From the NCBI RefSeq assembly GCF_001942405.1, contig NZ_MKKA01000016.1, positions 1 to 52,967 on the forward strand: a DNA stretch of 52,967 nucleotides, read 5' to 3'. The notes beneath the pieces were generated by a model. It did not search any database, was not told where the DNA came from, and saw nothing but the letters and a program-made list of their open reading frames with translations. Shown here piece after piece: positions 14,804-27,365 of this stretch. Position numbers and translations under genes: made by a program. Every line of letters starts with the position of its first letter. Within the stretch, counting starts at the first letter, position 1. The stretch is from Ornithinimicrobium sp. CNJ-824. GTDB lineage: Bacteria; Actinomycetota; Actinomycetes; Actinomycetales; Dermatophilaceae.

Positions 14804-15660
14804 CGTCCGCACCGGCACGCGTCGCCGTGCTCACCATCGTCGCCGGCCGCCACGACCACCTCCGCGGGCAGGTCGCCGGCCTGACGCTCTCCCGCCGGCT
14901 GCCGGACCTGCACGTCATCGCCTCCATGGGCGACGACGACATCACCGCCGGCCGGGTCGAGGGACTCACCGGTCCCTGGCGGACCGAGGTCGTGCCGGTG
15001 GACGTCGGCGAGCTCGGCCTGCCCCTGGCGCAGGCCCGCAACGTCGCTGCGGCCCGTGCGGAGGAGCTGGGCGCCGACCTGCTCGTTCTCCTCGACGTGG
15101 ACTGCATCCCCGGCCCGGACCTCGTCGGCACCTACGCGACCCACGCGCTGGGCCCCGACCGGCCGCCCTCCCCGGCGATCTGGTGCGGCGACGTGGCCTA
15201 CCTGCCGCCGCTGGAGCCCGGGGAACGCCTGGACCTGGACCGGCTCGCCGAGCGCGGCCGCCACCGCGAGGACCGGGTGCTGCTCGGGCCCGGCGAGACG
15301 CTGCGCGAGGACGACCTGCGGATGTTCTGGTCGCTGTCGTTCGCGATGACGCCCGACGACTTCCGGGCGGCCGGCGGCTTCTGCGCCGACTACGTCGGCT
15401 ACGGCGGTGAGGACACCGACTTCGCCCAGGCCGTCGCCGCGGCCGGGGGGAGCCTGACCTGGGTGGGCGGCGCGACGGCATACCACCAGCACCACGAGAG
15501 CACCTCCCCGCCGGTGCAGCACCTGGAGGCGGTCGTGCGCAACGCCGGCGTCTTCCACGACCGGTGGGGGTGGTGGCCGATGGAGGGGTGGCTGACGGCG
15601 TTCGAGGAGCGCGGGCTCGCGCGGGTCGGCGCCGACGGGCGCTGGGAGGTGGCGCGGTGA
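14800..15660 (+). CDS. Glycosyltransferase family 2-like protein with galactosyltransferase C-terminal domain
   Basis: 286 residues, ATGA overlap with the previous gene. GT-A fold: AVLTIVAGRHDHL opens the domain, LVLLDVDCIPGPDL carries the DxD metal motif, and GGFCADYVGYGGEDTDFAQ is the C-terminal GGED segment with the catalytic Glu/Asp. A His-rich AYHQHHES follows. The combination resembles actinobacterial GT2 proteins with the GT7 C-terminal domain. Cytoplasmic, third of six coupled genes. Confidence 0.85.
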   Translation: MTSAPARVAVLTIVAGRHDHLRGQVAGLTLSRRLPDLHVIASMGDDDITAGRVEGLTGPWRTEVVPVDVGELGLPLAQARNVAAARAEELGADLLVLLDVDCIPGPDLVGTYATHALGPDRPPSPAIWCGDVAYLPPLEPGERLDLDRLAERGRHREDRVLLGPGETLREDDLRMFWSLSFAMTPDDFRAAGGFCADYVGYGGEDTDFAQAVAAAGGSLTWVGGATAYHQHHESTSPPVQHLEAVVRNAGVFHDRWGWWPMEGWLTAFEERGLARVGADGRWEVAR

Positions 15661-20943: not shown

Positions 20944-21495
20944 TCACGCCCCCACCACCTGACGCTCCAGCCACCGGACGTCCACCGCGAACGACCACGT
21001 CACGAGCACCACCGCGAGGGCGACCGCCACCTGCACCAGCACCTCGGGCCACACCGGTGCCATGCCGATGACGAGCGTCCCCGTCGTCGTCCCGCCCGCG
21101 ATCCGGCGCCACGGCCGCGGCGGCAGCGGGCGCCGCCACGCCGGACGGACGACCTGCACCGCGAGGAAGACCGGGAGCAGCAGCCCGCCGACCAGCGCCC
21201 ACGGCGCGAGCGGGACGACCGCCACCGACAGGACGAGCACGAGCAGCCCGTCGACGCCCGAGTCCAGCCGCGCCCCACGGTCGGTGACCGACCCGGTCCG
21301 GCGCGCGACATACCCGTCGAGGGCGTCCAGCGCCCAGGCCGGCACGGCCAGCGCCACCAGCGTCCACGCCCACGCGCCCCGACCGTCGCCCACGTCCCAC
21401 GCGTCGCCGTCGACGAACCCGCGCAGGACGACCACCGCGAGGACGAGCACCAGCACGCCACGTCCGGCGGTGATCAGGTCGGCGGGCCGGGTCAC
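20944..21495 (-). CDS. CDP-alcohol phosphatidyltransferase family protein
   Basis: 183 residues with about five to six membrane helices. DALDGYVARRTGSVTDRGAR plus the following LDSGVD contains the complete family signature D-x2-DG-x2-AR-x8-G-x3-D-x3-D, with all four Asp and the Gly in place. The enzyme transfers a phosphoalcohol from a CDP-alcohol, but its acceptor is unknown. GTG 21495 is chosen because TAGCGT sits exactly 7 nt upstream. The longer ATG frame would overlap the divergent gene. Divergent from the pterin-like operon. Confidence 0.85.
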   Translation of the reverse strand: MTRPADLITAGRGVLVLVLAVVVLRGFVDGDAWDVGDGRGAWAWTLVALAVPAWALDALDGYVARRTGSVTDRGARLDSGVDGLLVLVLSVAVVPLAPWALVGGLLLPVFLAVQVVRPAWRRPLPPRPWRRIAGGTTTGTLVIGMAPVWPEVLVQVAVALAVVLVTWSFAVDVRWLERQVVGA

Positions 21496-21502
21496 CTCCG
21501 GC

Positions 21503-21508
21503 ACGCTA
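21503..21508 (-). promoter_or_regulatory. -10 box TAGCGT, leaderless start of the phosphatidyltransferase gene
   Basis: Minus-strand TAGCGT ends 7 nt before GTG 21495 and decides that start. Confidence 0.5.
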
Positions 21509-21546
21509 CCGGGGGCGTCCGCCCGGCGCGGCCCGCGACGACCGGC

Positions 21547-21552
21547 CACAAT
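21547..21552 (+). promoter_or_regulatory. -10-like box CACAAT, leaderless start
   Basis: CACAAT ends 7 nt before ATG 21560. The same box recurs at 29809, 6 nt before another start. ATG 21551 overlaps the box and is therefore disfavoured. Confidence 0.4.
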
Positions 21553-21559
21553 GGCGGGC

Positions 21560-22525
21560 ATGGAGGCACGGGCGTACTGGACGGTCCCGCCGGGTCACGG
21601 CGAGGTCCGCACGGAGCAGATCGCCCCGCCGGGGCCGGGCGAGGCGCTGGTGCGGGCGAGGCTGTCCGCCGTCAGCCGCGGCACCGAGCTGCTCGTGCAC
21701 CGCGGCGGCGTGCCCGAGGCCGTCGCGGAGCGGATGCGGGCGCCGTTCCAGGTGGGCGACCTGCCCGGGCCGGTCAAGTACGGCTACCTCTCCGTCGGCG
21801 TCGTCGAGGACGGGGAGCCGGACTGGGTCGGGCGGCGCGTCTTCTGCCTGCACCCCCACCAGGACCGGTATGTCGTGCCCGTCTCCACCCTCACGCCCCT
21901 GCCCGAGGACCTGCCGGACCGGCGGGCCGTCCTGCTCGGCACCCTGGAGACGGCCGTCAACGCGCTGTGGGACGGGCGGCCGCTCTACGGCGACCGGGTC
22001 GCCGTCGTCGGCGGCGGCATGGTCGGGGCCTGCGTGACCGCGCTGCTGGGCCGGATGCCGCTGACCCGGCTCGAGCTCGTCGACCCGGACCCGGAGCGGC
22101 GGGCGCTCGCGGCCGGCCTGGGCGCCGTCGGCGTGACGCCGGAGGAGGCGTCCGGCGACTGCGACCTCGTCCTCCACGTCTCCGCCACGTCCGCCGGGCT
22201 GCAGCGGTCGCTGGAGCTGCTCGGCGACGAGGGGGAGGTCGTCGAGCTGTCCTGGTACGGCGACCGGACCGTCGCCGTCGACCTCGGCGCCGACTTCCAC
22301 GCCCGTCGGCTCTCCGTCCGCGCCAGCCAGGTCAGCCGGGTCAGCCCGCACCGGGCCGCCCGGCGCGACCACGCCGACCGGCGGCAGGTGGCGGTCCGGG
22401 CCGCGGCCGACGAACGGCTCGACGCGCTGCTCGCCGGGCCGACGCCGCTGGACGAGCTGCCCGCCCTCATGGACAGGCTCGCCGACGGGGCGCCCGGCCT
22501 GTGCCACCTGGTGTCCTACCCCTGA
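21560..22525 (+). CDS. Zinc-binding-type alcohol dehydrogenase-like protein (MDR superfamily)
   Basis: 321 residues. VRARLSAVSRGTELLVHRG opens a GroES-like domain, but the catalytic Cys and the structural four-Cys lobe of true zinc dehydrogenases are missing. VAVVGGGMVGACV is the Rossmann motif. It therefore belongs to the metal-poor MDR branch that includes BchC-like and sorbitol-like reductases. It opens a plus-strand run with a PTPS homologue, a glycosyltransferase and a methyltransferase, so it probably oxidises or reduces an intermediate of the same pathway. That link is inference from position. Confidence 0.75.
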   Translation: MEARAYWTVPPGHGEVRTEQIAPPGPGEALVRARLSAVSRGTELLVHRGGVPEAVAERMRAPFQVGDLPGPVKYGYLSVGVVEDGEPDWVGRRVFCLHPHQDRYVVPVSTLTPLPEDLPDRRAVLLGTLETAVNALWDGRPLYGDRVAVVGGGMVGACVTALLGRMPLTRLELVDPDPERRALAAGLGAVGVTPEEASGDCDLVLHVSATSAGLQRSLELLGDEGEVVELSWYGDRTVAVDLGADFHARRLSVRASQVSRVSPHRAARRDHADRRQVAVRAAADERLDALLAGPTPLDELPALMDRLADGAPGLCHLVSYP

Positions 22526-22574
22526 GCCCGCGCGCACGGCATACCCCCCGACCCCCGACCGCTAGGAGCCCGCG

Positions 22575-22957
22575 TTGTTCACCCTCACCGTCCGCGACCA
22601 CGTCATGCTGGCCCACTCGCTGCCCGTCCCGTTCTTCGGCCCGGCGCAGGGGTTGCACGGGGTGACCTACGTCGTCGAGGCGACCTTCGAGCGGCCCGAC
22701 CTCGACGAGCACGGGTGGTGATGGACATCGGCGCGGCGACCGAGGCGCTCAAGGGCGTGCTGGGGCGGATCGCCTACGGCAACCTCGACGAGATGGCGGA
22801 GTTCGCCGGGATGCTCACCACGACCGAGGTGATGGCCCGGTGGGTGGCCGACCGGCTGGCCGAGGCCGTCGACACCACGGGGCTCGAGGCGCTGACGGTG
22901 ACGCTGCGGGAGCACCCGGACGCGTGGGCGAGCTACCGGCGGGACCTGACGGGGTGA
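22575..22957 (+). pseudogene. 6-pyruvoyl-tetrahydropterin / 6-carboxytetrahydropterin synthase homologue, frameshifted in this sequence
   Basis: TTG 22575 has AGGAG six bases upstream and opens [15 protein letters not shown], then [19 protein letters not shown], the first half of a PTPS/QueD fold. That frame stops at 22716. The -1 frame continues MDIGAATEALKGVLGRIAYGNLDE and NTTTE-like LTTTEVMARWVADRLAEAV to TGA 22957. One missing base near 22712 would give one protein of about 127 residues. The zinc site is unusual: the first His (AHSL) and LHG are present, but the second His of the HxH pair is Val. Known enzymes convert dihydroneopterin triphosphate. This subgroup may do something else. Confidence 0.72.
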
Positions 22958-24111
22958 GTCCCGGACGCGCGGCGCCGCTGACCTTCGTCGTGCCCGCGCG
23001 GCCGGCGGGGGAGCCCAGCGGCGGGGACCGGTATGACGCGCTCCTCGCCGCCGCGTGGCGGGCCCGGGGCCGCGAGGTGCACGTGGAGGCGGTGCCCGGG
23101 TCGTGGCCGCGGCCGACGGGGGAGGACCTGGCCGGGCTGGCGGACGTGCTGCTCGGGGCTCCCTCCGCTCCTGTGACTCATCGGTCGTCCCGACGACCGA
23201 TGTGTCACGACAGCGGGGAGGGCGGCGGGCCCGTGCTGCTCGACGGGCTGGTCGGGTGCGCGGCGCCGGAGGTCGTGGAGCGGTGCGCCGCCCGGCGGCC
23301 GACGGCGGTGCTCGTGCACGCCGTGCTGTCGGAGGGGGCCGGGGCGAGCGGGGAGGACGCCGCGGCGATGGACCGGTCGGAGGCCCGGGCGCTGCGGGCC
23401 GCAGGCGCGGTCGTGGCGACGAGCCGCTTCGCGGCGGAGGACCTGCGGGGGCGCTACGGGCTGGAGGAGGTGGCGGTCGCCGAGCCCGGCGCGGAGCCGG
23501 CCCCGCTCGCCGGGGGCACGCCGCCGCCGCGCGGTCCGCAGCTGCTGGCCCTGGGGGCGGTCACGCCGGGAAAGAACCACGGCGTGCTGCTCGAGGCGCT
23601 GGCCCGGGTGCGTGACCTGCCGTGGGCCGCGCGGTGCGTCGGCCCCGCCCCCGACCCCGAGCAGCTCGACCGGCTGCTCCGGCTGGCCGAGGGGCTCGGG
23701 CTGGCCGACCGGGTCGACTGGCCCGGGCCGATGACCGGCGAGGCGCTGGAGCGCACGTGGGCGGCGACCGACCTGCTCGTGCACCCCTCGAGGAGCGAGA
23801 CCTACGGGATGGTCGTGGTCGAGGCGCACGCGCACGGCATACCCACGGTGGTGGCGGCCGGGACGGGCGCGGTCGAGGCGCTGGCGGGGGAGGCAGGCGT
23901 GGCGGGGCACCCGCCGGCGGGCGGTGCTCCCGGAGCGGCCGTCGACGTTACCGGGCCGGGGCCGTTGGCGGAGGTGCTGCGGGAGTGGCTGACCAGCGCG
24001 GACCTGCGACGGGCGTGGCGCGAGGCGGCGGTGTCGCGCCGGGGACGGCTGTGCGGATGGGACCGGACCGCCGAGCGGATGGACGCCGCACTCGCCAGAC
24101 TGGGGCGATGA
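22954..24111 (+). CDS. Glycosyltransferase family 4-like protein
   Basis: 385 residues from GTG 22954, overlapping the PTPS stop (GTGA). The N-lobe starts LTFVVPARPAGEPSGGDRYD, with a Gly-rich acceptor loop. The C-lobe has LLALGAVTPGKNHGVLLEAL and HPSRSETYGMVVVEAHAHGIPTVV, the E(x)7E nucleotide-sugar motif. A 36-bp palindromic element at 23173-23208 lies in frame inside the N-lobe, adding about 12 residues. Position between a PTPS homologue and a methyltransferase suggests glycosylation of a pterin- or pyrimidine-like product, an inference. Confidence 0.82.
   Translation: MSPGRAAPLTFVVPARPAGEPSGGDRYDALLAAAWRARGREVHVEAVPGSWPRPTGEDLAGLADVLLGAPSAPVTHRSSRRPMCHDSGEGGGPVLLDGLVGCAAPEVVERCAARRPTAVLVHAVLSEGAGASGEDAAAMDRSEARALRAAGAVVATSRFAAEDLRGRYGLEEVAVAEPGAEPAPLAGGTPPPRGPQLLALGAVTPGKNHGVLLEALARVRDLPWAARCVGPAPDPEQLDRLLRLAEGLGLADRVDWPGPMTGEALERTWAATDLLVHPSRSETYGMVVVEAHAHGIPTVVAAGTGAVEALAGEAGVAGHPPAGGAPGAAVDVTGPGPLAEVLREWLTSADLRRAWREAAVSRRGRLCGWDRTAERMDAALARLGR
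23173..23208. repeat. REP-like palindrome, copy 1, inside a glycosyltransferase gene
   Basis: Arms of 17 bp (23173-23189 and 23192-23208) pair with a single mismatch around a CC loop. The core is CATCGGTCGTC then GACGACCGATG. A second element with the same arms, length and loop lies at 41510-41545 in an intergenic region. The insert keeps the reading frame open. Confidence 0.75.
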
Positions 24112-24968
24112 CGACCGAGCCGGCGCAGCGGGCCAGCCCCGACTGGCTGGACCTGCGGTGGGCCGCCGACGCGGAGGCGCGGGACCGGGGGGCCGCCGAC
24201 CTGCTGGAGCGGCTGGTCTCCCACCTGCGCGGACCGGGCCGCGACCAGGGGCCGGTGCGGATCGTCGACGTCGGGGCCGGGACGGGGGCGAACCGGAGGT
24301 ACCTGTCGCCGCGGCTGCCGGTCGAGCAGGAGTGGGTCTGCGTCGACCACGACCGGGAGCTGCTGGACCACCCCCGGCACGACGGCGCGCGCCGCATCCA
24401 CTGCGGGCTGGCGGACCTGCCCGCGGCGGTGGCAGGGCTCGGGGGTCCGGCCGACCCTGCCGCGGTCGTGGTGGCCAACGCCGTGCTCGACGTGCTGACG
24501 ACGGCCGACCTGGCCGCCCTCGCGGACTGCGTCGCCGCGACCGGAGGGCTGGCGCTGCTGTCGCTGTCGGTCACCGGGCAGGTGCGCTGGGAGCCGTCCG
24601 ACCCGGTCGACGACGTGCTGGCGCGGGCGTTCGACGACCACCAGCGGCGGGACGGACGTCCCGGGCCGGACGCCCCGACGGTCCTGACGGGGATGCTGCA
24701 GGAACGGGGGCTGCGGGTGGTGGCCGCGCGGACGCCGTGGGACCTGCCGGGGCCGGACGGCCGGCACCGCGAGCTGCTGGTGCGCTGGCTCCAGGAGCGG
24801 GTCGGGGACGCCGCCGGGCAGGAGCCCGCGTCCGCCGAGGCGCTGCGCGAGTGGCAGGCCCGACGTGCCCCGCAGATGGAGTCAGGCGCCCTGCGGGTCC
24901 GGGTCGACCACGTGGACCTGCTCGTCCTCGGCCGGGACGTGGCCGACGGAGCGCAGCGGGGGGCGTGA
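24108..24968 (+). CDS. Class I SAM-dependent methyltransferase
   Basis: 286 residues from ATG 24108 (ATGA overlap with the previous stop). VRIVDVGAGTGANRRYL is motif I of the Rossmann methyltransferases, WVCVDHDRELL carries the acidic residue that binds the ribose, and VVVANAVLDVL fits motif IV. The extended C-terminal part with LLQERGLRVVAARTPWDL is not family-diagnostic. The last 87 bp overlap the 3' end of the convergent RibA-RibD gene. The substrate is unknown; context suggests the same pathway as the PTPS homologue. Confidence 0.82.
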   Translation: MTTEPAQRASPDWLDLRWAADAEARDRGAADLLERLVSHLRGPGRDQGPVRIVDVGAGTGANRRYLSPRLPVEQEWVCVDHDRELLDHPRHDGARRIHCGLADLPAAVAGLGGPADPAAVVVANAVLDVLTTADLAALADCVAATGGLALLSLSVTGQVRWEPSDPVDDVLARAFDDHQRRDGRPGPDAPTVLTGMLQERGLRVVAARTPWDLPGPDGRHRELLVRWLQERVGDAAGQEPASAEALREWQARRAPQMESGALRVRVDHVDLLVLGRDVADGAQRGA

Positions 24969-26361
24969 GGTCACGCCCCGCCCCGTGGCCCCGCCCTCGG
25001 GCGCGCCGTCCCTCAGCACGAACTCGGTGACGACGTCCTCGCCCAGCACCCACCGACGGGCGGCCGGCCGCAGCGCGTCGGCCAGCCGGTCGGTCCCGCC
25101 GACCCGCAGGCCGGGGACGCCGTCCCCGATGAGCACGGGGGCCGTGGTGAGGAACAGCCGGTCGACGGCACCCGCCTCGACGAACGCCGAGACCAGGCGC
25201 CCGCCCCCCTCGACGAGCACCCGGGTCAGCCCGCGAGCCGCGAGCAGGTCCAGGACCTGGTGGGGAGCCATCGGACCGTCGTCCTCCCAGCGGACGACCT
25301 CGACGTGGTCGGCGAGCCCGTCGGGGACCTCGACCTCCGGCCCGACCACCCACAGGGTCGCGGCGGCGCCGTCGGTGAGGGTGGCGGTGTCCTGCGGCAG
25401 GACGCCCCGCGGGTCGAGCACGACGCGGACGGGGTTGTCGCCGGGGACCGCCCGGACGGTGAGCCGGGCGTCGTCCGCGGCCACGGTGGCGGCGCCCACG
25501 ACGACGGCGTCCACGAGCGCGCGCAGACGGTGGAGGTGCTCGCGGTCGGCGTCGCCGGTGACGTACTCCGCGTCGCCGGTCCGGCTGGCGATGAACCCGT
25601 CGATGCTCTGCCCGAGCTGGGCCAGCACCAGGGGCGCCGCGCGCCGCCCGCGACCAGCGGGCCGTAGCGGTCGGCCAGCACCCCGTCGGAGGCACCCGGC
25701 CGGCCAGGAGCAGCTGCCACTCGTCGAGGGCGTCCCGGTCGTGCCCCATCCGCTCGCGCTTGGTCTCCAGGTAGCGCTCGTTCTCCGGCCGCGTCGGCAC
25801 GATGAGCGGCCGCCGCTCCTCGATGGTGATGCCGAGGCCGGTCAGCGCCTGCTCCTTGGCCGGGTTGGACGACAGCAGGCGCACCGACCGCACGCCGAGG
25901 TCGGCGAGCATCGCGGCGGACTGGTCGTAGGTCCGGGCGTCGGCCGGGTGCCCGAGGCGCAGGTTGGCGTCGACGGTGTCGACCCCGGCGTCCTGCAGCT
26001 CGTAGGCACGCAGCTTCTCGGCCAGGCCGATGCCGCGCCCCTCGTGCCCGCGGACGTAGACCACCGCGCCGCGGCCCTCCTGCGCGATGAGGTGCAGCGC
26101 GTGCTGGAGCTGCTCGCCGCAGTCGCACCGCCGCGAGCCCAGGGCGTCCCCGGTGAGGCACTCGGAGTGGACGCGCACGAGCGGGGCCGGGGCGTCCACG
26201 GGGTCGTCGTCGTGGATGCCGACGCTGACGACGACGTGCTCCTCGCCGGTGTCGTCCCGGTAGGCCGTCATCCGGAAGGTCCCGTGCCGGGTGGGCAGCA
26301 CGGTGTCCGCCATGCGCTCGATCATGGCGAAGCGGTCCTCGGAGACGGGATCCATCGACAT
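24882..26361 (-). pseudogene. GTP cyclohydrolase II fused to RibD-type reductase, two frameshifts in this sequence
   Basis: From ATG 26361 the N-terminal ~215 residues are GTP cyclohydrolase II. VRVHSECLTGDALGS then the CDC zinc Cys residues, YVRGHEGRGIGL, DTVDANLRLG and LLSSNPAKEQAL are all present. Near 25691 and again near 25640 one base is missing. Across both, the frame resumes with LVLAQLGQSIDGFIASRTG, the start of a RibD C-terminal (dihydrofolate-reductase-like) domain ending near LVEGGGRLVSAF and VGGTDRL. Together they would open GTP and reduce the pyrimidine product, the first steps toward riboflavin or a related compound. The tail overlaps the convergent methyltransferase gene. Confidence 0.75.
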
Positions 26362-27152: not shown

Positions 27153-27344
27153 TGACACGCCGGGACGGCCTGTGCAAGAACCGTGCCCCAGCACGCGACA
27201 CGCCGCAGCGCCGGCTGCACGGTGCGCGACACGCCGGGACGGGGGTGGCAGACGCCCGAGCGCCGGCTGCACGGTGCGCGACACGCCGGGACGGGGGTGG
27301 CAGACGCCCGAGCGCCGGCTGCACAGTGCGCGACACGCCGGGAG
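27153..27344. repeat. 52-bp tandem repeat array upstream of the osmoprotectant transporter operon
   Basis: Units begin at 27207, 27259 and 27311 (exact 52-bp period). The first two are identical over nearly the whole unit and the third diverges after 27343. Two further partial units lie to the left. The word GACACGCCG occurs five times (27154, 27197, 27228, 27280, 27332). Each unit also carries GCCGGCTGCAC. The array fills the divergent region between a HAD gene and the ABC operon, ending about 20 bp before the -10 box. Confidence 0.85.
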
Positions 27345-27365
27345 GCCGGAGGGCGACCCAGCCGA

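What the first reader, a model, noticed from the sequence alone, without database searches (positions are those of the whole stretch)
20944..26361. Possible undescribed pathway to a glycosylated, methylated pterin- or flavin-precursor compound
A metal-poor MDR reductase, a PTPS homologue, a glycosyltransferase and a SAM methyltransferase are translationally coupled on the plus strand. They face a GTP cyclohydrolase II joined to a RibD-type reductase, and a CDP-alcohol phosphatidyltransferase is divergent. GTP cyclohydrolase II and RibD chemistry gives a reduced pyrimidine, and PTPS-type enzymes act on pterins. Glycosyl- and methyltransferases would decorate a final product. This looks like a small biosynthetic locus for a cofactor or natural product; pteridine glycosides are known in cyanobacteria. 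Pathway order is inference.
Basis: inference. Interest (0 to 1): 0.72.

Follow-up and report, generated by a model that had tools for sequence, protein, structure and literature searches.

The report
Orphan GTP-derived pteridine gene cluster
A block of neighbouring genes, found together in many actinobacteria and on some proteobacterial plasmids, is predicted to turn GTP into a sugar-bearing, methylated, probably membrane-linked pteridine-like compound that no paper we could search describes, and it is likely not just a vitamin B2 pathway.

Summary
The gene set is real and at the stated coordinates, with corrections: the PTPS homologue and the GTP cyclohydrolase II (GCHII)-RibD_C gene are each broken by frame changes in this draft, whereas most relatives examined carry them intact. 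The set is conserved. Of 80 named loci chosen by the MDR reductase alone, 79 have the PTPS homologue, 77 the glycosyltransferase, 56 the CDP-alcohol transferase, 54 the methyltransferase, 50 a flippase-like protein. Versions also occur on plasmids of Microbacterium, Agrobacterium, Peteryoungia, Palleronia and Thiodictyon. The PTPS homologue matches S. coelicolor SCO6650 (PDB 3d7j) and lacks the Cys, Zn-His and triad His of working PTPS or QueD. The GCHII keeps the catalytic Tyr. In a related lineage that Tyr is Met or His, and all 34 such loci carry a creatininase-family gene, a family with a proven FAPy deformylase; this is one clade, so roughly one event. A congener without lumazine or DHBP synthase keeps the cluster GCHII intact, so riboflavin is unlikely to be its only purpose; in this genome, however, it is the only GCHII found and probably feeds both. 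Product and step order are inferred.

The parts
20944..21561 (-). CDP-alcohol phosphatidyltransferase, divergent from the MDR gene; start codons overlap
   Evidence: PF01066 52.3 bits; motif DxxDGxxARx8Gx3Dx3D complete, and in 54 of 54 counterparts of the named loci scoring over 100 bits
21560..22525 (+). MDR-superfamily oxidoreductase, BchC-like, without the catalytic-zinc Cys
   Evidence: TIGR01202 39 bits, far below its cut-off of 291; no Cys before residue 99; model pLDDT 83, nearest solved folds are threonine and polyol dehydrogenases
22575..22957 (+). PTPS-like T-fold protein (SCO6650 type), in two frames in this draft
   Evidence: both pieces hit PF01242 over its cut-off; C-terminal piece hits PDB 3d7j (SCO6650), E 3e-15; family lacks Cys, HGH and triad His
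22954..24111 (+). GT4 glycosyltransferase, overlaps PTPS stop by 4 bases
   Evidence: PF00534 73.7 bits; E-x7-E motif; closest NCBIfam MshA 57 bits, far below cut-off
23151..23230 (.). imperfect palindrome giving an in-frame insert in the glycosyltransferase
   Evidence: 39-base arms, 74% complementary; insert absent from the 7 of 8 aligned relatives that cover the place
24108..24968 (+). class I SAM methyltransferase, overlaps GT stop by 4 bases
   Evidence: PF13649/PF13489 weak, below cut-offs; generic class I methyltransferase fold, pLDDT 90
24882..25628 (-). RibD_C (pyrimidine reductase) domain, C-terminal part of the GCHII-RibD_C gene
   Evidence: PF01872 128 bits; best solved match 2,5-diamino-6-ribosylamino-4(3H)-pyrimidinone 5'-phosphate reductase 6p8c
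25702..26361 (-). GTP cyclohydrolase II domain, Tyr-type, N-terminal part of the same gene
   Evidence: PF00925 212 bits; Tyr aligned with Tyr105 of GCHII 2bz0; only PF00925 hit in G000

Best explanation
The locus is a conserved biosynthetic gene cluster that likely makes a GTP-derived, glycosylated and methylated pyrimidine or pterin compound and is predicted to attach it to a lipid. Proposed order (all steps inferred from families): the Tyr-type GCHII opens GTP and removes formate to give 2,5-diamino-6-ribosylamino-4(3H)-pyrimidinone 5'-phosphate (APy); the RibD_C partner reduces the ribose to a ribityl chain without deaminating the ring; the zinc-free PTPS-like T-fold protein and the MDR oxidoreductase shape or close the ring and side chain; the GT4 enzyme adds a sugar to a hydroxyl; the methyltransferase methylates; the CDP-alcohol transferase joins the polyol to a phospholipid. 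In related actinobacteria a GCHII with Met or His at the Tyr site, plus a creatininase-family protein, would give the same diaminopyrimidine in two steps (FAPy, then deformylation). Shown here: gene content, synteny, residues, and retention of the GCHII in a congener with no lumazine or DHBP synthase match. Not shown: any activity or the product.
For: Synteny: in 80 named loci found by MDR alone, PTPS 79, GT 77, CDP-OH 56, MT 54, LPG_TM 50, GCHII 45, creatininase 34, RibD_C 18. Cross-phylum versions on Microbacterium, Thiodictyon (gamma), Agrobacterium, Palleronia and Peteryoungia (alpha) plasmids. GCHII tied to the cluster: of 18 same-genus genomes including the own one, 13 have the MDR and 12 of those a GCHII not beside DHBP synthase; 0 of 5 without MDR have one. 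G002 lacks PF00926 and PF00885 matches (controls ring in 14 of 14) but keeps an intact 459-aa GCHII-RibD_C ORF. Tyr-type GCHII goes with RibD_C in 10 of 10 named loci, two of them weak matches of 74 and 78 bits, one ORF in 8 of 10. RibD_C is nearest the undeaminated-substrate reductase 6p8c, and an O. sediminis counterpart has Gln where B. subtilis RibD has Lys. GCHII switch residue: creatininase in 34 of 35 non-Tyr loci, 0 of 10 Tyr loci; a creatininase-family enzyme, BrbF, deformylates FAPy (PMC9478397, abstract and passages).
Against: The window's GCHII is the only one found in its own genome, which has a riboflavin operon whose RibB lacks GCHII, so a riboflavin role is likely as well; G008, G015 and G023 look the same. 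RibD_C is not seen in 29 of the 34 loci with creatininase, and 4 of 5 Streptomyces genomes searched have no cluster-type RibD_C elsewhere, so reduction by RibD_C is not universal; absence from a locus is not absence from a genome, as Kocuria L022 has a 68% identical RibD_C elsewhere. 26 of 80 loci, 22 of them Arthrobacter or Pseudarthrobacter, show no MT. All non-Tyr GCHIIs form one clade (94/89), so the creatininase coupling counts as about one event. G002 has no MT found next to its cluster. MDR rings in only 8 of 296 phylum genomes, own included. The lipid step rests on the CDP-OH family and on LPG_TM, for which the window gives no hit and which was not sought in the rest of the genome.
Confidence: 0.55

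Rival explanations
1. Split GTP cyclohydrolase I: GCHII (with or without the creatininase-family deformylase) makes the diaminopyrimidine, and the zinc-free PTPS-like T-fold protein performs the sugar rearrangement and ring closure that GTP cyclohydrolase I does alone, giving a dihydroneopterin phosphate; RibD_C, a relative of dihydrofolate reductase, would then reduce the pterin.
For: GCHI and PTPS share the T-fold (recalled); the homologue lost a Zn-His and the Cys but keeps the Thr-Thr-Glu and last Glu, recalled as pterin-anchoring; RibD_C is not seen in most creatininase-type loci, as expected if ribose must not be reduced first; the window's RibD_C also hits a dihydrofolate reductase chain, 1cz3, at E 8e-4.
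Against: Fusion of RibD_C directly to GCHII, and its closest match to the ribosylaminopyrimidinone reductase 6p8c, fit immediate reduction of the GCHII product better.
Confidence: 0.2
2. Simply riboflavin supply: the GCHII-RibD_C pair replaces a lost RibA domain of the housekeeping operon and the neighbours are unrelated.
For: Only GCHII found in this genome; RibB on C12 is without a GCHII domain; same in G008, G015 and G023.
Against: A full-length ribD ORF already exists on C12; G002 keeps the pair without PF00926 and PF00885 matches; 8 of 17 congeners have a GCHII beside DHBP synthase plus this separate copy; a GCHII lies near the MDR in 45 of 80 named loci.
Confidence: 0.12
3. The MDR-PTPS-GT trio makes a compound unrelated to GTP cyclohydrolase II (for example from a sugar nucleotide), and GCHII-RibD_C was added only in some lineages.
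For: Arthrobacter and Pseudarthrobacter loci show the trio without a neighbouring GCHII.
Against: The 6 such genomes searched have 2-5 hits to the GCHII-RibD_C query elsewhere; GCHIIs beside the trio sit on several branches of the tree, though its deep branching is poorly supported; the trio's PTPS family keeps residues recalled as pterin-anchoring.
Confidence: 0.13

Closest known systems
Streptomyces coelicolor SCO6650 (PDB 3d7j) and SCO6655 GCHII (Spoonamore et al. 2006, content recalled; PMC3227873 not held, reference seen in the list of PMC3509567)
   Same: SCO6650 is the closest solved relative of the PTPS homologue (E 3e-15 for the window piece; 209 bits to the family profile); other Streptomyces loci have the same CDP-OH/MDR/PTPS/GT/MT order.
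   Different: The window's GCHII has Tyr at the switch site and is paired with RibD_C; the 26 Met-type loci, all Streptomyces by the tree listing, have a creatininase-family gene and RibD_C in only 5. SCO6655 itself was not aligned and the S. coelicolor locus was not fetched; its FAPy product, Met120 and place near SCO6650 are recalled.
BrbF/ArfB FAPy deformylase step (S. meliloti SMc02977, PMC9478397)
   Same: Creatininase-family gene in 34 loci whose GCHII has lost the catalytic Tyr.
   Different: No hit in the window; the one Streptomyces protein tested (L035) scores better to MftE (131 bits) than to ArfB (39 bits), both below cut-off; BrbF works in riboflavin synthesis.
PTPS-II (biopterin), PTPS-I (QueD), PTPS-III subfamilies (motifs from PMC5041015, passages)
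   Same: PF01242 T-fold family.
   Different: CxxxxxHGH, CxxxHGH and ExxHGH motifs are missing; the family reads GPAQxLHGA, the window HGV.
Bacterial RibBA/RibD riboflavin operon
   Same: GCHII and RibD_C domains.
   Different: Here they stand with MDR, PTPS, GT and MT genes; ribD, ribE, ribB and ribH lie on C12.
Tetrahydrobiopterin glucoside pathway of cyanobacteria (recalled)
   Same: PTPS-like protein, a reductase and a glycosyltransferase.
   Different: Starts from GCHI there; here GCHII with RibD_C and a PTPS homologue without the catalytic residues. Not compared by sequence.

Membership tests
SCO6650-type PTPS homologue | best solved match 3d7j and motif FGPAQxLHGA...DIG...NLD...TTE | tested here: met
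   the window reads HGV rather than HGA, and its gene is in two frames
Working PTPS-II / QueD (PTPS-I) / PTPS-III | CxxxxxHGH, CxxxHGH or ExxHGH motif | tested here: not met
   Cys and third His missing in the family alignment (99 rows incl. the 2 window pieces; alignments to 1b66, 2g64, 4ntk); motifs from PMC5041015
GTP cyclohydrolase II (APy-forming) | TIGR00505 over cut-off; catalytic Tyr at E. coli 105 | tested here: met
   230 bits against cut-off 206; Tyr aligned; activity untested
FAPy-forming GCHII (SCO6655 type) | Tyr replaced (Met; recalled), creatininase-family gene in the locus | tested here: not met
   Tyr present; no creatininase hit in the window
Diaminopyrimidine (undeaminated) reductase | over NCBIfam cut-off TIGR01508 | tested here: inconclusive
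   104 bits, cut-off 186; best solved match 6p8c; Lys of B. subtilis RibD replaced by Gln in a counterpart (meaning recalled)
Zinc-dependent alcohol dehydrogenase (MDR) | catalytic zinc Cys in the first third | tested here: not met
   first Cys at residue 99; fold is MDR
CDP-alcohol phosphatidyltransferase | DxxDGxxARx8Gx3Dx3D | tested here: met
   acceptor alcohol not testable
Retaining GT4 glycosyltransferase | PF00534 over cut-off, E-x7-E | tested here: met
   donor and acceptor unknown
Riboflavin operon | ribB and ribH beside ribA | tested here: not met
   the only PF00926 and PF00885 matches of G000 lie on contig C12
Biopterin-type pathway | GTP cyclohydrolase I in the locus | not tested
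   no PF01227 search was run
Lipid-linked product pathway | flippase-like LPG_TM protein in the locus | tested here: not met
   in 50 of 80 named loci but no hit in the window at E 1e-3 with two seeds

The most novel reading that the evidence does not exclude
The cluster makes a lipid-anchored pteridine (or ribityl-diaminopyrimidine) redox cofactor: GCHII, RibD_C, the zinc-free T-fold protein and the MDR build the head group, GT and MT decorate it, the CDP-alcohol transferase ties its ribityl hydroxyl to a phospholipid, a flippase-like protein (in relatives) turns it outward, and a cytochrome b561 (in proteobacterial copies) exchanges electrons with it. That would be a membrane cofactor of a kind not known, and the purpose of the orphan FAPy-forming GCHII of Streptomyces.
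Probability: 0.15. Interest if true: 0.92.

Novelty: new variant of a known kind. Interest (0 to 1): 0.62.

Why it matters
Two S. coelicolor proteins, a PTPS homologue deposited as 'uncharacterized' (SCO6650) and a GCHII that I recall stops at FAPy (SCO6655), have as far as I know no assigned pathway. The comparison puts SCO6650-type proteins in one conserved cluster with a glycosyltransferase, methyltransferase, CDP-alcohol transferase and flippase-like protein, and shows two versions of the first steps: Tyr-type GCHII with RibD_C, or Met/His-type GCHII with a creatininase-family gene. It suggests a source of FAPy for creatininase-family deformylases; the authors of PMC9478397 wrote that the enzyme making FAPy in BrbF bacteria is yet to be discovered. 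It also predicts a compound that can be looked for by mass spectrometry in tractable Streptomyces.

Tried and rejected
Rejected: riboflavin synthesis as the sole role (G002; conserved neighbours). Rejected: a working PTPS or QueD (catalytic residues lost). Rejected: zinc alcohol dehydrogenase. Not useful: fold search of the methyltransferase gave only generic class I methyltransferases. Fisher's test of switch residue against creatininase (p 3e-9) is not used as evidence, because the tree in the same call shows one clade. The MT search in six Arthrobacter/Pseudarthrobacter genomes was empty but had no positive control. Literature: ten searches listed no paper on the cluster; the tag SCO6655 was found in one paper, as a table row of PMC2853524. 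The library holds open-licence papers only, so this does not show that nothing is in print. Automatic gene calling was too noisy and was replaced by family searches.

Rows dropped: phmmer hits overlapping a better hit; PTPS rows at or under 100 bits; GCHII rows at or under 60 bits and 2 of 81 rows (150 residues or fewer); CDP-OH rows at or under 100 bits in the motif count. RibD_C includes five weak matches of 20-78 bits (L027, L055, L061, L067, L091).
Full report
What is there. The window is a 52,967-base contig (C16) of a 3.45 Mb, 62-contig high-GC assembly, 92.5% complete; the closest named relatives are Ornithinimicrobium. In 20944-26361 I confirm a CDP-alcohol phosphatidyltransferase (-), an MDR reductase, a PTPS homologue, a GT4 glycosyltransferase and a methyltransferase (+), and a RibD_C domain and GTP cyclohydrolase II (GCHII) on the minus strand. 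The divergent start codons of the first two genes overlap. The PTPS gene and the GCHII-RibD_C gene are each broken by frame changes here. By eye, a ribE on contig C12 also looks split over two frames, so draft errors are likely, but this is inference.

Conservation. Families were assigned by phmmer with seeds from the window, the annotated plasmid clusters and loci L035, L037, L051 and L092. Of 80 loci: MDR 80, PTPS 79, GT 77, CDP-OH 56, MT 54, LPG_synthase_TM 50, GCHII 45, creatininase 34, RibD_C 18 (five of them weak, 20-78 bits), sulfatase-like 7, inositol-monophosphatase 3, FkbM methyltransferase 3. PTPS, GT, MT and LPG_TM are on the MDR strand wherever found; CDP-OH is opposite in 50 of 56. 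Twenty-six loci show no MT, 22 of them Arthrobacter or Pseudarthrobacter. In a phylum-wide draw the MDR rang in 8 of 296 genomes, own included, with at most seven candidates scored per genome, so the cluster is patchy. tblastn with RibD_C over plasmid records found 16 records; I opened 5, and all have MDR, PTPS, GT, MT and RibD_C genes: Microbacterium pSGAir0570_2, Ca. Thiodictyon pTs417, Agrobacterium pAt, Palleronia and Peteryoungia. Of these, GCHII is annotated near by in Agrobacterium, Palleronia and Peteryoungia, CDP-OH in all but Palleronia, a flippase-like protein in Microbacterium, Agrobacterium and Peteryoungia, and cytochrome b in 3 of the 4 proteobacterial ones (b561 by Pfam in the one tested).

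Riboflavin question. In the own genome PF00925 rings once, in the window. PF01872 rings three times. Contig C12 carries ribD, ribE, ribB and ribH; the DHBP synthase match ends at 14838 and the lumazine synthase match begins at 14934, leaving no room for a GCHII domain. So this GCHII probably supplies riboflavin here too; G008 (74% complete), G015 and G023 look alike. But of 18 same-genus genomes, the 13 with the MDR include all 12 that have a GCHII apart from DHBP synthase; the exception, G004, is 84% complete with the MDR at the very start of its contig. None of the 5 without MDR has such a GCHII. G002, a single-contig genome, has no PF00926 and no PF00885 match, yet an intact 459-aa GCHII-RibD_C ORF and an intact MDR-PTPS-GT trio 9 kb away; the stretch between holds other genes and no recognised MT.

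Residues. The PTPS family (99 rows; 21-sequence profile) has FGPAQxLHGA where working enzymes have Cys and HGH, and Tyr where the triad His lies; Thr-Thr-Glu and the last Glu remain. The window itself reads HGV. PMC5041015 (passages) gives the working motifs and says that the function of PTPS-V is still unclear; whether SCO6650 belongs there I did not test. PDB 3d7j is SCO6650, 'uncharacterized'. I recall, and could not read, that SCO6650 was reported to lack zinc and PTPS activity. The GCHII has Tyr at E. coli 105. Among the 45 loci with a GCHII, 26 have Met, 8 His, 1 Leu and 10 Tyr; creatininase is present in 34 of the 35 non-Tyr loci (not seen in the Leu locus L082, where the cluster runs to the end of the fetched stretch) and 0 of the 10 Tyr loci; RibD_C is present in 10 of 10 Tyr loci and 5 of 35 others. 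The non-Tyr GCHIIs form one clade (94/89), so this is about one event kept through many genera. The Tyr-type cluster GCHIIs sit on several branches, though the deep branching is poorly supported. I recall that S. coelicolor SCO6655 makes FAPy because of Met120 (Spoonamore 2006; PMC3227873 not held; PMC3509567, passages, cites it for changed GCHII activities). PMC9478397 (abstract and passages) shows that a creatininase-family protein, BrbF, turns FAPy into the diaminopyrimidine. The Streptomyces creatininase-family protein tested (L035) is not an NCBIfam ArfB or MftE by cut-off.

RibD_C best matches 6p8c, a 2,5-diamino-6-ribosylamino-4(3H)-pyrimidinone 5'-phosphate reductase, at 95 bits against 73 for the next. 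A Lys of B. subtilis RibD is Gln in the O. sediminis RibD_C and Asn in 6p8c and 2azn; that this Lys marks the deaminated substrate is recalled. This favours a product that keeps the 2-amino group, as pterins do. Four of five Streptomyces genomes tested have no cluster-type RibD_C, while Kocuria L022 has one elsewhere in its genome, so this step differs between versions and absence from a locus is not proof of absence.

MDR: no Cys in the first 98 residues, BchC-like by profile far below cut-off, threonine/polyol-dehydrogenase fold. MT: generic class I fold. CDP-OH motif complete; the weak profile hits include enzymes that I recall use phosphorylated alcohols (PgsA and archaetidylinositol phosphate synthase), and also PssA; this would fit a ribityl phosphate acceptor but proves nothing.

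Judgement. The strongest new points are the cluster's spread, its PTPS homologue of SCO6650 type, the two versions of the first steps, and the GCHII kept without lumazine and DHBP synthase. The chemistry after the diaminopyrimidine, the sugar, the methyl site and the lipid link are inferred.

Noticed in passing
window 23151-23230: An imperfect palindrome (39-base arms, 74% complementary) inside the glycosyltransferase gene adds about 20 in-frame residues absent from the 7 relatives that cover the place; its 24-base core occurs exactly only here in the assembly, with three other places at 2-3 mismatches.
   Followed up: partly
window 27200-27355: Three tandem 52-base repeats (83-100% alike) upstream of what looks, by eye, like an ABC transporter ATPase gene.
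   Followed up: no
window 22719-22721 and 25630-25700; contig C12 near 13.6-13.8 kb: Frame breaks in PTPS, in GCHII-RibD_C and, by eye, in ribE of the same assembly; draft base errors suspected.
   Followed up: partly
G002, locus L108 4546-13348: In G002 the place between GCHII-RibD_C and the glycosyltransferase holds other genes (ORFs resembling, by eye, a TetR-type regulator, a monooxygenase, a flavin reductase and an acyl-CoA synthetase), and the methyltransferase is not found there.
   Followed up: partly
G005, G009, G014: Three single-contig same-genus genomes have no match to GCHII, DHBP synthase, lumazine synthase or the cluster MDR: possible riboflavin auxotrophs.
   Followed up: no
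L037, L047, L071, L083, L084, L086, L090, L095: A GCHII variant with His at the catalytic Tyr place (KVRTHxLQ) in Actinomadura, Spirillospora, Amycolatopsis and Pseudonocardia, with a creatininase-family gene in 8 of 8 loci.
   Followed up: partly
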